A stretch of 64,000 nt of DNA, from the NCBI GenBank assembly GCA_030435675.1, contig CM059621.1:17712374-17776373 (forward strand). The letters run 5' to 3'. Source of the DNA: Steinernema hermaphroditum. Its lineage: Eukaryota > Nematoda > Chromadorea > Rhabditida > Steinernematidae. The notes beneath the pieces are model-generated. The model had not been told where the DNA came from and made no database searches. It saw only the letters and a program-made list of their open reading frames with translations. Of this stretch, positions 19,973 through 36,356 are shown one piece after another. The position numbers were made by a program, and so were the translations under genes. The first letter of the stretch is position 1; the number at the start of each line of letters is the position of its first letter.

Positions 19973-20482
19973 TGTCGCCTCCAGGCGACCCTCTTCTTCC
20001 TTTCCCCCTATTTCAGAGGCCATTGTCGCCGACAGGACCAAATCTGTCGGCGACAAGCGGCCCGTCGCGCGACGAAGAAATCACAACATCAACGAGCCAC
20101 CGCCTCAGCCGCCATCTTCGTCGCCACCAGACACCTTCGCTCCCTCGCCAGTCGAACAGTTCGAAGGACGGTCAGCGGTCGCGCACGCCGTCTCCACCGC
20201 TTCCGTCCTCGTCTCCTCGCGTCGTTCGCCGCTCGCCGCTTAGTGATCCGTGCCCCCTTATGCCCCGTGCCTTTGTCTTATATTTCGTGTATATAAATGT
20301 TTAATTACCCAAGTTTGAGATTTCTCTACAACGCTCTCTCTCGCGTTTTCCTTCATCGTCGTCGATCCTCAGTTCGTCGTCGATCACCCTCAGCAAAAGA
20401 CCCGCGTGGCAGGACCCCAGGACGAGAAGGCCCATTCCTCCGTCCACTCTCCAATCCAACACACCACTGAACAGCCAGTTCA
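19973..20482 (+). mobile_element. solo LTR of a BEL/Pao-related element, 5-bp target duplication
   Basis: The unit starts TGTCGCC and ends GTTCA, with CCTTC on both sides (19968-19972 and 20483-20487). The paralogous repeat at 20861-21104 shows the empty site with a single CCTTC at 20982-20986. Inside are TATAAA, then 21 nt of the SL1 leader (20299-20319), then CCCGCGTGGCA at 20401-20411. These occur in the same order as in the LTRs of the intact BEL/Pao element at 24.5-34.6 kb, although the two LTRs are otherwise diverged. No internal element sequence remains, so this is a recombination-derived solo LTR. Confidence 0.9.
20299..20319 (+). promoter_or_regulatory. 21 of 22 nt of the SL1 spliced leader inside the solo LTR
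   Basis: The stretch from GTTTAATTACCC through AAGTTTGAG equals SL1 nucleotides 2-22; the first base is T instead of G. TATAAA lies directly upstream (20292-20297). The leader is followed by ATTTCTC, not by the GT donor that follows it in SL RNA genes. Confidence 0.9.
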
Positions 20483-22504: not shown

Positions 22505-23205
22505 TCCAAAAAAATACGATTTCCAAAAAAGTGCCGAAATCGGGCTGAGTGTGTCTCGAATTCGACCTCATCCTGTCACGAGGAAGTCATTCCAGGCCGT
22601 CAGCTAGGGCGCATTTTTGTGGCACAACCGAGAAAGTCAGAACGGCCATAGTTTGGCTATCGAGAGCCTATTGATAATTTTGAGAAAAATACGATTTCCA
22701 AAAAAGTGCCGAAATCGGGCTGAGTGTGTCTCGAATTCGACCTCATCCTGTCACGAGGAAGTCATTCCAGGCCGTCAGCTAGGGCGCATTTTTGTGGCAC
22801 AACCGAGAAAGTCAGAACGGCCATAGTTTGGCTATCGAGAGCCTTTTGATAATTTTGAGAAAAAATACGATTTCCAAAAAAGTGCCGAAATCGGGCTGAG
22901 TGTATCTCGAATTCGACCTCATCCTGTCACGAGGAAGTCATTCCAGGCCGTCAGCTAGGGCGCATTTTTGTCGCACAACCGAGAAAGTCAGAACGGCCAT
23001 AGCACTTTTTCGGAAATCGCATTTTTTCTCAAATTTTTACAACAGCTCTCGATAGCCAAACTATGGCCGTTCTGATTTTCTCGGTTGTGCCACAAAAATG
23101 CGCCCTTGCTCACGGCCTGGAATGACTTCCTCGTGACAGGGCGAAGCCGAATTGGAGACACACTGAGCCCGATTTCGGCACTTTTTTGGAAATCGGATTT
23201 TACGA
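22505..23205. repeat. 176-bp satellite family: three direct copies and one inverted copy
   Basis: Direct units recur at 175-176-bp spacing (the motif CGGCCATAG falls near 22644, 22819 and 22995). Each includes AAAGTGCCGAAATCGGGC, GGAAGTCATTCCAGGCC and GCACAACCGAGAAAGTCAG. From about 23000 to 23205 the unit runs in reverse, forming an inverted repeat with the direct copies. The same family occurs as a longer run at 56.7-57.7 kb. Confidence 0.9.
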
Positions 23206-24240: not shown

Positions 24241-24511
24241 ATGCCGTCCCGCAACATTCCATCACGGACACCAAGTCAAACACGCAAAGCTGCCGTCGTA
24301 CTTACTGTAGTTCGCCAGCCCGAGCAGCAGCACCGCGCTCGATATCTCTCCGAAGGAAGCCGCGGCGCTATCAAGGATCGCAGTGGATCTTCCCATTGCA
24401 GTGTCCAGGTGCATACGAGCTACAGTCTCCAATAGAATAGTCCGGATGTTGCAGCTCACTGGCTACTACCGCCCCATGCGCGTTGAAATGTATGCCGGAT
24501 CGGGGGCCGGG
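24241..24511 (+). pseudogene. NFAT5/TonEBP-like Rel-homology protein, 5' part (interrupted)
   Basis: Exon 24241-24408 encodes the start of the Rel-homology DNA-binding domain. The stretch QHRARYLSEGSRGAIKDR matches the DNA recognition loop of NFAT5-type proteins. A 46-nt GT-AG intron follows. The second exon starts at 24455 (LTGYYRPMRVEMYAGSG) and is cut at 24511 by the BEL/Pao element. The reading frame resumes exactly at 34593 after one copy of the CCGGG duplication. NFAT5-type factors regulate transcription in osmotic stress and immunity in other animals. The ATG at 24241 is 8 nt after an acceptor and is the likely start; an earlier exon cannot be excluded. As assembled, this allele cannot make an intact DNA-binding domain unless the element is spliced out. 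Confidence 0.85.
24507..24511. repeat. target-site duplication CCGGG (left copy)
   Basis: CCGGG immediately precedes the 5' LTR and is repeated at 34588-34592 directly after the 3' LTR. Five bp is a usual duplication length for BEL/Pao elements. Confidence 0.95.
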
Positions 24512-24896
24512 TGTCGCGTCCGCGACTTCATTCGAACCATCCTTTCTTAATCATCAAGTCATCCTATTCAAAGATCACCATCGGAGGAGTTGTGAGTCAA
24601 GATTTCAAAAGTACAAAAGTGTCAACAACTGGATCACGAGGCAAATAAGGGAAGGACTTGCGGGCCGTCGAAAACAACTTAACGACCCGCCACAGATCGC
24701 TCCCCTTCCTCACTCTTCCACCCGAACATCGTTCTTCCCTGTTACGTGTTAAATTTGTCGTGTTTGTATTTTATAAAAGGTTTAATTACCCAAGTTTGAG
24801 ATCCCACAGAACTATACATCCTAACGTGATCCAATCAAAGACCCGCGTGGCAGATTTCATCGAACGAGCTTCTAACCAACGAGACCCGACCGCTTA
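24512..24896 (+). repeat. 5' LTR
   Basis: 385 bp, starting TGTCGCGTCC. TATAAAA is at 24772-24778 and SL1 at 24779-24800, followed by CCCGCGTGGCA at 24842-24852. The last four bases are CTTA, whereas the 3' LTR ends TACA. A TGG-initial primer-binding site follows immediately. Confidence 0.95.
24779..24800 (+). promoter_or_regulatory. complete SL1 spliced-leader exon within the 5' LTR
   Basis: All 22 nt match nematode SL1: GGTTTAATTACCC followed directly by AAGTTTGAG. The next bases are ATCCCAC, not the GTAAAC-type donor of an SL RNA gene, so the copy ends exactly where a trans-spliced leader would join an mRNA. TATAAAA abuts it on the left. A TATA-directed start would fall near the 3' end of the leader, so whether SL1 belongs to U3 or to R is undetermined. 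Confidence 0.97.
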
Positions 24897-24914
24897 TGGT
24901 GCATCGTCCTCATC
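24897..24914 (+). other. putative primer-binding site
   Basis: TGGTGCATCGTCCTCATC begins with the TGG expected opposite a tRNA 3' CCA and directly follows the 5' LTR. The tRNA is not identified. Confidence 0.5.
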
Positions 24915-32877: not shown

Positions 32878-34176
32878 ATGTTCCAGATGTCCCACGAAAC
32901 ACTTCAACTCACTTATGAATATCTCAAGAGCGCCTATGATGACGCTCTAGTCCGGATTCATAAGTTAACATCACCTGAAGAATTGAAGAAAGCAGCGAAT
33001 GAAAGCAGAGCGAAGGCAACCGAATCCATCCTCGAAACTGCAGCGGACAAGTTCACGGAGATTCAACGACTGGTGAAACAACTCATGATTCTCCAAGCGT
33101 TCCGCTACCAAAACCAACGACTGCGGGATGAACTTCGGGCCACAGCCATGGGTCTACAATGCATCACGGAGACTTTGGACCAGGTTCAAGGAAAGAAGTC
33201 ATACGTTGATGAGTACACCAACTGGTTGGATTGCAAAGTGGAAGTCAATCGATTTGTCTACGATCCAAAGTTAGACAAGCCAGCTTCAGATCCAATGGTG
33301 AAGGTTACAAGTCATGAGACCAGAGACCGTGAACTCCTAGTGAAGAAATTGGACGAAAACCTCGAATCCATTATGAGCACGATCAGACGCGTCGAAGAGA
33401 CTATGAATGACGTCTTTGAAAGACCACTAGTCATCAAAGAAGTCAAAGACGCTAAAGTAAACACCGAAGAATCAGAAGGAGTTGAGATTCATGTCCAAGA
33501 AATCCAGACCGAACAAATGGAAGTATCCATCCCAAACTTAGTAGAAGACGATGAGTTGATGGAAGAGACCGAATAGCTTGACTACGACGAAGATCCCGAG
33601 GAAATCCAGAATTCGCAGTCCGTGGATGGACAAGAAGACGAATCACTAGAGACAGCCGAAGGGGCCACTCAGACGGACCTCTCAGTCATTCCACGTTTCG
33701 AAGGAAATGCAGCAGCACGATGCAAGTGCCTCAAGGTAGTGCAGAGAAGAATCGAAATTCATTTGCATGACATATATGAAGAAATTCAAGAGCTGAGAGG
33801 TCTAATCCATTCCCGTACTATTGACCCACACAGAGTCGTCCATGGAAATCTCCAAGGCGTCTTTTGTGGAGACACGGGAAGGCATTATTCGGAACAATGT
33901 CCTGTGAAAACCCACATTGATGATAGGAAGGATGAACTGAACCGTCGACACAGATGTTTCAAGTGTTTACAAATGCATGGAGGCCGGTGTCTGAAGCACT
34001 ATCAGTGCCGCCACTGTTTAAGCCATGACCATCACCAGGCAATCTGTCCCAGGATCACAGACATTGCGATTCTGAAGGTTCGCAGAGAAGAGCTAGAAAT
34101 CGAAAGGACAGAAGCTAGTAACGTCTTGGCTGAAGTGCGAGAAGAATTCGACCGATTGGAAACAAGTCATCCATAG
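32878..34176 (+). CDS. extra 3' ORF with Gag-like CysHis array, one in-frame TAG
   Basis: This 433-codon frame lies between env and the 3' LTR. It begins ATG at 32878, or ATG 32887 just after TGTTCCAG, which could be a splice acceptor for a subgenomic RNA. Residues 1-230 are helical and probably coiled-coil. A single TAG at 33574-33576 interrupts a continuous acidic segment; the frame reopens at once and runs to 34176. The last third has cysteines and histidines spaced like the element's own Gag knuckles (RCFKCLQMHGGRC; CRHCLSHDHHQAIC). I infer a diverged second nucleocapsid-like protein. The stop may be a mutation in this copy or a readthrough site. I know of no equivalent ORF in described BEL/Pao elements. 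Confidence 0.8.
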
Positions 34177-34189
34177 AAGCATCAACTGT

Positions 34190-34202
34190 CAAGCGGGGGG
34201 AC
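34190..34202 (+). other. polypurine tract before the 3' LTR
   Basis: CAAGCGGGGGGAC directly precedes the TGTCGC start of the 3' LTR, the usual plus-strand priming position. Confidence 0.75.
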
Positions 34203-34587
34203 TGTCGCGTCCGCGACTTCATTCGAACCATCCTTTCTTAATCATCAAGTCATCCTATTCAAAGATCACCATCGGAGGAGTTGTGAGTCAAGATTTCAAA
34301 AGTACAAAAGTGTCAACAACTGGATCACGAGGCAAATAAGGGAAGGACTTGCGGGCCGTCGAAAACAACTTAACGACCCGCCACAGATCGCTCCCCTTCC
34401 TCACTCTTCCACCCGAACATCGTTCTTCCCTGTTACGTGTTAAATTTGTCGTGTTTGTATTTTATAAAAGGTTTAATTACCCAAGTTTGAGATCCCACAG
34501 AACTATACATCCTAACGTGATCCAATCAAAGACCCGCGTGGCAGATTTCATCGAACGAGCTTCTAACCAGCGAGACCCGACCGTACA
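34203..34587 (+). repeat. 3' LTR
   Basis: 385 bp, differing from the 5' LTR at one position before the last four bases; ends TACA directly before CCGGG. Contains TATAAAA and SL1 at the same offsets as the 5' LTR. Confidence 0.95.
34470..34491 (+). promoter_or_regulatory. complete SL1 spliced-leader exon within the 3' LTR
   Basis: 22 of 22 nt, at offset 267 in the LTR, the same as in the 5' LTR. Confidence 0.97.
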
Positions 34588-36356
34588 CCGGGCCCGTCTC
34601 CGCTCATCCACTCTACCAGCTCATTCCAGTATCTGGAAAAGCGGCGAACACGACACCCTGCAAAGCAGTAACATCATCGGAAGGAATCAACTGCTTGGAG
34701 GTGACTCTGCGGCAAGAAAACAATATGACTGCACTGTTGGTCGAAATAATTAGGAACATACAGACAGTAAAAGAAAAACTTTCAGACTCGACTGTGTGGG
34801 AATTTTGAAAATATGCACTTATGACGTGAAGCAGCGCCGTCTTACCAAAAGTGCCTCGAACTGCTCAGTATGTCTCGTATTTCGAGCGTTCATTCCCGAT
34901 CCAAGTGGCGGTCCAGATACCGTAATCCAAACGGAGAGCGAGCCAATTCGATGTGTGCAGCAGCTTGGCGTCCCCGAAGTTTTCAAAATGTCTCTGAACA
35001 CTGCAAATGCTAGAGGCGGCTGCGATCTTTTCGTAATTGGAAGAAATTTCGACCACAACACTACCGTTCTCTTCAGGGAATACAAAGAAGGTACTTTGCA
35101 GAAACTTTGAACAATTACTAAAAAAAGCTTTAGACGGCAATCTTTCGTGGAGCGCTGAGGCCCCCATCGATAAACAATATTTACATCAGGTTTAGTTGAA
35201 CACCTACGACATAGGTTCATCTCACTTTTAGTGCCACATAGTATGCACAGTGCCCACGTACCACAGCCTTGGACGCGGCGGGACCGTATCGGTCACAGTA
35301 AAGTGCGGCTCCAAGTTGAGCCATCCAACCACGTTCCACTTCACGCCGAATCCCGGTCAGTTATCGAGGCGGTGAAATGCCTTTATGCACCTCAATTCTC
35401 CCCTCCTTACGCTTCTCTCCTAATCTTTCCCTCAGCCTCGCACTGCCTTCAACGGTGTGGGCCAAGGTAGGGTGCGACCCGGCTTTGTCTCATCTAGTTT
35501 CAGGCCTCTGCTTTCTTCAGGCCTCTTGCATTTAGAATGGGATGGAAGTGATGTAGAAAAGGGGTATATAGAACTGGTTATTGAATGGGTTCTTATTTTC
35601 TGCAGAAGGTTATATACATCAACCTATTTCGAAAATTTAATTGTACGTTGGCATGTCAGTTAATCCTCTTTAAAACTGCAAGACAAAAAACTGAAATGTC
35701 GTGGAACAAAAGAACTGAACGTATAGCGTAAATTCAATTTTTAACATCATAACTACCCTCTATTTTTTTCTTTTTAACAGATGAAATCAATGGTACTCTA
35801 GTTCTCCCAACTTTTGACTTGATTTGATCGCATGACCGACAAAAGTTAAGTGCTGCCATACTGCACCCTCACCTCTGCTTCTTGATTTTCCATTCTGCAA
35901 AAACATCTACTGATGAACGCCTTTATCGTGCCTTTGCTTCTGTTTCGCAACAGGAATTCTTCATCACCGTAGACTGCATTCTCGGGGCAAAGTACACAAC
36001 TCATTGCCACGCTCTCTCGATCACCCCACTTTCGCGGCGACGATAAACATCGCCCTATTACAATTTAGTGCTGCGCCCTTCAGATCCTGATTAGGGACCG
36101 ACTCCTTCCCTTATGGTCCCCATCCTTACGCTGAATCACAAAATCTTTAGAAGACGATGACTGGCGGCCGCCAGAGTCCCCGAAGTACGAGATCCCTTCG
36201 TATGACAGAGGCTACGAGGCGTCATACACTCCATTGGGCTACGGTAGCCTATCGCACGGTCCAGGCAGCTCCGGAGCATATCACCACGACGACGACAAAG
36301 GTGCGGCTTTCGGCAAACGAATGAAGCTTACCGAAGACGCTGGCGTGTATTTCTGA
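34588..36356 (+). pseudogene. NFAT5/TonEBP-like Rel-homology protein, 3' part (interrupted)
   Basis: After the right CCGGG copy the broken exon resumes at 34593 (PVSAHPLYQLIPVSGKAANT) and ends at 34735. Further exons are 34786-35090, 35134-35189, 35232-35355 and 36151-36356, all in frame with GT-AG introns. They encode the rest of the Rel DNA-binding half (NNMTALLDCVGILKI) and the IPT/TIG dimerisation half (GGCDLFVIGRNF; SAEAPIDKQYLHQCHIVCTV). A short acidic and Tyr/Gly-rich tail with a basic GKRMKL patch ends at TGA 36356. Removing the element and one duplication copy restores an open frame of about 352 codons. No other lesion is visible, so the gene was probably functional until this insertion. 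Confidence 0.85.

What the first reader, a model, noticed from the sequence alone, without database searches (positions are those of the whole stretch)
24779..24800. Intact nematode SL1 spliced leader built into the LTRs of a BEL/Pao retroelement
Both LTRs carry all 22 nt of SL1 (GGTTTAATTACCC, then AAGTTTGAG) at offset 267, ending exactly where a leader joins an mRNA and with no SL RNA donor after it. The related but diverged solo LTR has 21 of 22 nt at the equivalent position, although the surrounding LTR sequence differs. Conservation between two LTR families argues for function. One hypothesis is that an ancestral element captured SL1 by reverse transcription of its own trans-spliced RNA. 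The SL1 copy in the 3' LTR could then act as the R region, letting any trans-spliced genomic RNA complete first-strand transfer and making the host leader part of the replication cycle. It could also mimic a leader for translation. TATAAAA directly upstream leaves open that SL1 is promoter-proximal U3 instead.
Basis: partly seen in the sequence, partly recalled or inferred. Interest (0 to 1): 0.97.

Follow-up and report, generated by a model that had tools for sequence, protein, structure and literature searches.

The report
Host spliced leader as retrotransposon R
In this nematode genome, two unrelated kinds of jumping gene carry the worm's own 22-letter spliced leader at the joint of their end repeats where copying has to jump from one RNA end to the other, which suggests that they borrow a piece of the host's RNA machinery to complete their copying.

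Summary
In detail: SL1 is exact in both LTRs of the window's BEL/Pao element and 21/22 at 20298. 124 LTR-type places in the genome carry the SL1 21-mer; those read form about 21 families, some BEL/Pao and some Ty3/gypsy. A poly(A)-signal-like hexamer abuts SL1 in 27 of 27 representatives, and five common signals are absent after SL1 in 20 LTRs scanned. Copies found by U3 alone keep SL1 more often than U3 identity predicts (11 of 18 against 2.6). LTRs with near-identical SL1+U5 carry unrelated U3s, the change-over lying at SL1 (31 pairs; all four U3xU5 combinations), as strand transfer at R would leave. Best explanation: SL1 is R; its 5' copy most likely comes from trans-splicing (inferred). 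A TATA/initiator promoter is the main rival. SL1 is not required for BEL elements: 4 of 62 A17 hits have it nearby. Prior art: Brugia PAO elements flanked by SL1 (PMC7181701), without the R model or gypsy in the passages read. No RNA data were available.

The parts
24507..24511 (.). target-site duplication CCGGG, left copy (right copy 34588-34592)
24512..24896 (+). 5' LTR, 385 nt; four differences from the 3' LTR, three of them in the last four bases
24772..24777 (+). hexamer TATAAA, poly(A)-signal-like or TATA box, one base before SL1
24779..24800 (+). SL1, 22/22, proposed R region
24801..24896 (+). proposed U5; carries CCCGCGTGGCAG (24842-24853), complementary to the tRNA-Gly anticodon arm
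24897..24906 (+). primer-binding site TGGTGCATCG, tRNA-Gly(GCC)
   Evidence: primer supported by L039 and L011
25013..32764 (+). 2583-aa open frame with BEL/Pao Gag-Pol domains and a phlebovirus-type Gc domain
34194..34201 (+). purine-rich stretch before the 3' LTR, probable polypurine tract
   Evidence: read by eye
34203..34587 (+). 3' LTR
34470..34491 (+). SL1, 22/22, in the 3' LTR
20298..20319 (+). SL1-like block, 21/22, in a related LTR family

Best explanation
The SL1 block is the R region of these LTRs. U3 ends in a poly(A)-signal-like hexamer and SL1 follows at once, so the 3' end of the genomic RNA is made in or just after SL1 (inferred from recalled signal spacing). The 5' end of the genomic RNA is SL1 as well, most likely because the host trans-splices SL1 onto the pre-genomic RNA at the AG that ends the LTR's own SL1 copy; this would also remove the signal from the RNA 5' end (inferred). 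Minus-strand strong-stop DNA, primed by tRNA-Gly in the BEL group, then ends in anti-SL1 and anneals to SL1 at the RNA 3' end. Each cycle would rewrite the LTR's SL1 from host SL RNA, keeping it exact. Because the families share one R, strong-stop DNA can land on another element's RNA and swap U3s. Shown: place, conservation, hexamer, mosaics, tRNA-Gly primer. Inferred: both RNA ends and trans-splicing.
For: Exact 22-nt exon in about 21 LTR-type clusters of two superfamilies. Preserved in samples not chosen by SL1: 27 of 32 and 11 of 11 SL1-like blocks exact in two flank-only patterns, which also hit 3 and 5 unrelated places; 11 of 18 against 2.6 expected in copies below 95% U3 identity, P 2.8e-6 if independent. 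An AATAAA-like hexamer starts at -8 to -5 in 27 of 27 representatives; none of five common signals follows SL1 in 20 LTRs. 31 mosaic LTR pairs over 22 loci change over at SL1; all four combinations of two U3 types and two U5 variants exist; nine pairs show the reverse mosaic. SL1+TTTGAG in two families fits use of the AG inside SL1. Purine after SL1 in 26 of 27 representatives.
Against: No RNA data. TTTGAG is a poor acceptor by recalled nematode rules, and TTTGAG doubling may be replication slippage; each case is a single copy. TATAAA to the base after SL1 is 28-29 nt, the usual TATA-to-start spacing (recalled), and the second base after SL1 is T in 27 of 27 representatives, which would suit an initiator. 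The genomic RNA of Cer1, a C. [quoted passage not shown] Most BEL elements here lack nearby exact SL1: 58 of 62 A17 hits. Restricted to copies aligned up to SL1, the conservation test is weaker: 5 of 9 against 1.5, P 0.006.
Confidence: 0.55

Rival explanations
1. Core promoter: TATAAA is a TATA box, SL1 fills the stretch to an initiator at the base after SL1, and SL1 is kept as a transcription-factor site borrowed from SL RNA genes, whose leader is an internal promoter element in Ascaris (recalled; not found in the searches here).
For: Spacing of 28-29 nt; T/CATAAA in all 13 gypsy and 6 of 14 BEL representatives; invariant T two bases after SL1.
Against: 8 of 14 BEL representatives have no TATA-like hexamer but AATAAA or a one-base variant. 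No other common poly(A) signal was seen after SL1, so R would be only a few bases long. The SL RNA gene read has CATCGTC, not TATAAA, before SL1. Related U3s with unrelated U5s right after SL1 are hard to get by annealing in an R that starts after SL1.
Confidence: 0.2
2. R is SL1, but transcription starts at its first base; the RNA mimics a leader without trans-splicing.
For: The same mosaics; exact start of the block.
Against: The U3s show no resemblance by eye to the SL RNA gene flank read; it gives no reason for the exact 3' exon end or for SL1+TTTGAG.
Confidence: 0.14
3. Fossil: SL1 was captured once or a few times by reverse transcription of trans-spliced element RNA and is carried along without function; mosaics come from DNA recombination.
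For: This is what PMC7181701 states for Brugia PAO elements; most BEL elements here do without it.
Against: Same place next to the hexamer in two superfamilies; kept better than U3; repeated exchange at one point.
Confidence: 0.08

Closest known systems
Brugia malayi PAO elements with 'integral SL1' (PMC7181701, sections 7 and 24 read)
   Same: SL1 within 1 kb of PAO elements, sometimes two on the same strand flanking one element; authors conclude that leaders were added to expressed elements and integrated
   Different: No R-region model, poly(A) signal, mosaics or gypsy elements in the passages read; Brugia sequence not available here
Nematode BEL/Pao elements with phlebovirus-type envelope, such as Atlas virus of a hookworm (PMC9094657, passages)
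   Same: single Gag-Pol-Env frame between LTRs, phlebovirus-like Gc
   Different: the terms splice and SL1 do not occur in that paper's text
Cer1, a gypsy element of C. elegans (PMC3315495, passages)
   Same: a shorter Cer1 mRNA occurs with and without SL1
   Different: its 8-kb RNA was not trans-spliced at that site
Bipartite primer sites of Ty1 and Ty3 (PMC5371799, passages)
   Same: extra pairing between element RNA and the tRNA primer, like the U5 tRNA-Gly motif here
   Different: initiator tRNA-Met; Ty3's second part lies in U3

Membership tests
BEL/Pao (Belpaoviridae) | Pao peptidase A17, RT and integrase domains between LTRs | tested here: met
BEL/Pao (Belpaoviridae) | target-site duplication and tRNA primer site | tested here: met
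   CCGGG duplication; PBS
BEL/Pao (Belpaoviridae) | place in a pol tree | not tested
   no tree was built
Ty3/gypsy, for the second group of SL1-LTR elements | protease, RT, RNase H, integrase of gypsy type, no A17 | tested here: met
   pieces of four loci: L025, L003, L004, L093; SL1 on both sides of six RNase H hits; other families assigned by LTR similarity only
LTR R region | repeated at both RNA ends, between 5' end and poly(A) site | not testable with these tools
   no RNA data held
LTR R region | junction of U3 and U5 exchange | tested here: met
trans-spliced RNA | SL1 added from SL RNA, with trimethylguanosine cap | not testable with these tools
   only the exact exon block and SL1+TTTGAG cases
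SL RNA gene | SL1|GTAAAC with a downstream SL RNA body | tested here: not met
   window has SL1|ATCCC; compare L098

The most novel reading that the evidence does not exclude
Host SL1 is the R region of BEL/Pao and Ty3/gypsy elements: each replication cycle takes R anew from host SL RNA by trans-splicing. One shared R lets one family's strong-stop DNA join another family's U3, so promoters are exchanged between families at SL1.
Probability: 0.45. Interest if true: 0.95.

Novelty: new variant of a known kind. Interest (0 to 1): 0.84.

Why it matters
In LTR elements R is normally written by the element's own start site and poly(A) site. If host trans-splicing supplies it, these elements depend on SL RNA for replication, get a self-repairing R, and can trade U3 promoters between families. 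It would give a reason for SL1 near PAO elements in another nematode (Brugia), and it makes a clear prediction: in species with other leaders, the LTRs should carry that species' leader.

Tried and rejected
TATA box only: does not fit 8 of 14 BEL representatives; kept as a rival. SL RNA gene as DNA source: the flanks of the gene read differ. 'SL1 universal in BEL': rejected. SL1 in viral contigs and genome contigs: no match. Tandem SL1-SL1 from an AG before SL1: not seen; the three SL1+GV places begin GC, GA and GA. BEL-gypsy mosaics: none among the 50 most extreme pairs printed. PBS of the gypsy group (TGGCGATC): no tRNA identified; the one tRNA found in the window, tRNA-Arg(TCG), would give TGGCGACC, 7 of 8, and differs after that. 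Species: five large contigs and 90.6 Mb recall Steinernema (recalled, not tested; the S. hermaphroditum genome paper is not held).

Literature searches. Among the papers opened, only PMC7181701 tied SL1 to the ends of LTR elements in the passages read; supplements were not read, and papers on Ascaris Tas and C. elegans BEL elements were not read.

Full report
Observation. SL1 is exact at 24779-24800 and 34470-34491 and has one mismatch at 20298-20319; 100 shuffles of the window give none. The element has 385-nt LTRs (24512-24896 and 34203-34587) that differ at four sites, three of them in the last four bases; a CCGGG duplication; a tRNA-Gly primer site at 24897; and one open frame of 2583 aa with BEL/Pao domains and a phlebovirus-type Gc.

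Spread. The genome (90.6 Mb, 60 contigs) holds 265 exact SL1. Splitting the 21-mer (SL1 without its first base) by the next bases gives 25 places with A/C/T, 79 with GT then C/G/T, 18 with GTA then C/G/T and 3 with GV, one of them an SL RNA-like gene: 124 LTR-type places. The rest, SL1+GTAA, was not listed one by one; it includes SL RNA genes (L098) and two LTR-type sites (L016, L017). I read 98 sites in 95 of 96 loci, 76 distinct contexts, which form 22 clusters, one being the SL RNA-like gene. Not every listed place was read, and not every cluster was shown to have two LTRs; 20 same-strand SL1 pairs 1.2-12 kb apart exist.

Two superfamilies. One group has U5s with CCCGCGTGGC, complementary to tRNA-Gly, and BEL domains in the window and L028. 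The other has short U5s of about 60 nt and gypsy domains in L025, L003, L004 and L093. Families without a pol piece are assigned by LTR similarity only. Of 62 A17 hits, 4 have same-strand SL1 within 12 kb. Of 26 strong RT_RNaseH_2 hits, 8 have it within 7 kb, six of them on both sides, and of 28 weak hits 1 (random positions 0.7%).

Hexamer. In 27 of 27 representatives (14 BEL, 13 gypsy; one site, L051 near 612, left out because its superfamily is unclear) an AATAAA-or-one-mismatch hexamer starts at -8 to -5; between -60 and -9 six such hexamers occur in all 27 together. Gypsy representatives have TATAAA or CATAAA; 8 of 14 BEL representatives have AATAAA, AATGAA, AATACA, AGTAAA or AATAAG. Counting only AATAAA, TATAAA and CATAAA inside -7 to -1, 58 of 75 contexts have one, against 5 in 14,400 bases of upstream U3. 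In 20 LTRs scanned after SL1, five common signals do not occur; in 5 of them the LTR end was not located and 75 nt were scanned. That these hexamers are nematode poly(A)-signal variants, and their spacing, is recalled knowledge.

Conservation without choosing by SL1. With SL1 written as N between fixed flanks, the gypsy pattern gave 35 hits: 32 with SL1 (27 exact, 5 with 1 to 4 mismatches) and 3 unrelated; the BEL pattern gave 16 hits: 11 exact and 5 unrelated. Most of these are young, near-identical copies, so they show little by themselves. A U3-only query gave 41 rows, 40 copies (two rows belong to one copy), scored from 80 candidates: 29 of 40 have the exact 21-mer in place, 17.5 expected from U3 identity; below 95% identity 11 of 18 against 2.6 (P 2.8e-6); restricted to those aligned up to SL1, 5 of 9 against 1.5 (P 0.006). 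The P values treat copies as independent, which they are not. Of the 11 misses I read two: L101 has SL1 and hexamer replaced by U5-like sequence, L102 keeps only the last part of SL1. The per-position profile is biased for SL1 itself, because most loci were fetched by SL1.

Mosaics. Among 70 contexts (2,415 pairs) many pairs have U5s at 0.93-1.00 and U3s at the level of shuffled sequence (mean 0.47). By the cut-offs (U5 at least 95%, U3 at most 58%) there are 31 pairs over 22 loci. Identity per position is 87-100% from the first base of SL1 through +59 and drops before the AAA that precedes SL1; some upstream positions agree by chance, since few U3 types are involved. Two U3 types and two U5 variants occur in all four combinations (3, 3, 3 and 4 contexts); clustering gives 30 U3 types, 19 U5 types and 33 combinations, with four U5 types on more than one U3 type and two U3 types on more than one U5 type. 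Nine pairs, from few families, show related U3 (0.62-0.70) with unrelated U5. Minus-strand transfer between two RNAs at a common R leaves this; DNA recombination at 22 nt is possible but less likely.

Which 5' end? Trans-splicing is inferred. The block is the exact exon; the base after it is a purine in 26 of 27 representatives; two single copies carry SL1+TTTGAG, and in one of them 14 nt after SL1 are missing up to an AG (L055 against L083; L005 against L001). Against: poor acceptor, possible slippage, and Cer1's 8-kb RNA not trans-spliced. The T two bases after SL1 (27 of 27 representatives; 73 of 75 contexts) is unexplained and would suit an initiator.

tRNA. In L039 the LTR is followed by the antisense of a whole tRNA-Gly(GCC) with its CCA end. 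In L011 a U3 identical to the window's breaks off and is followed by a tRNA-Gly 3' end with CCA joined to anti-U5. Both look like aberrant reverse transcripts and identify the primer. Eleven of 14 BEL U5s reach P<0.003 for similarity to the antisense tRNA, the other three P 0.013-0.05; the unclear L051 site and all 8 gypsy U5s do not (single-base shuffles).

Prior art. PMC7181701 (sections 7 and 24 read) reports 120 integral SL1 in Brugia malayi, 60 within 1 kb of PAO elements, some in same-strand pairs, and concludes that leaders were added to expressed elements and integrated with them. The R-region reading, the gypsy elements, the hexamer and the mosaics were not met in the passages read from the papers opened or in the listings of the searches made.

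Verdict. The feature is real, widespread and placed at the junction where U3 and U5 are exchanged. R = SL1 is well supported by genome anatomy; supply by trans-splicing is likely but unproven.

Noticed in passing
L039 1684-1757; L011 1729 onwards: Two loci that look like aberrant reverse transcripts: LTR plus antisense of a whole tRNA-Gly(GCC) with CCA, and U3 joined to a tRNA-Gly 3' end with CCA followed by anti-U5.
   Followed up: partly
window 24842-24853; U5 of L027, L014, L012, L005, L079: U5 of the BEL group carries pieces complementary to the tRNA-Gly anticodon arm and, in some families, the D arm: a possible extended primer site.
   Followed up: partly
family representatives, two bases after SL1: T is invariant there in 27 of 27 representatives, after G or A in 26 of them; unexplained.
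   Followed up: partly
window 24893-24895 and 34584-34586: Three of the four LTR differences lie in the last four bases of the LTR (CTTA against TACA).
   Followed up: no
window 32878-33576 and 33622-34176: Two further open frames (232 and 184 aa) after the Gc domain, without Pfam match.
   Followed up: no
L101: A copy whose U3 is 99% identical to the query but with SL1 and hexamer replaced by U5-like sequence.
   Followed up: partly
L098; G000:C2 about 15.33-16.04 Mb: SL RNA genes in inverted pairs about 240 bp apart.
   Followed up: no
window 22510-23201: A 175-nt tandem repeat overlapping inverted-repeat arms of 141-200 nt.
   Followed up: no
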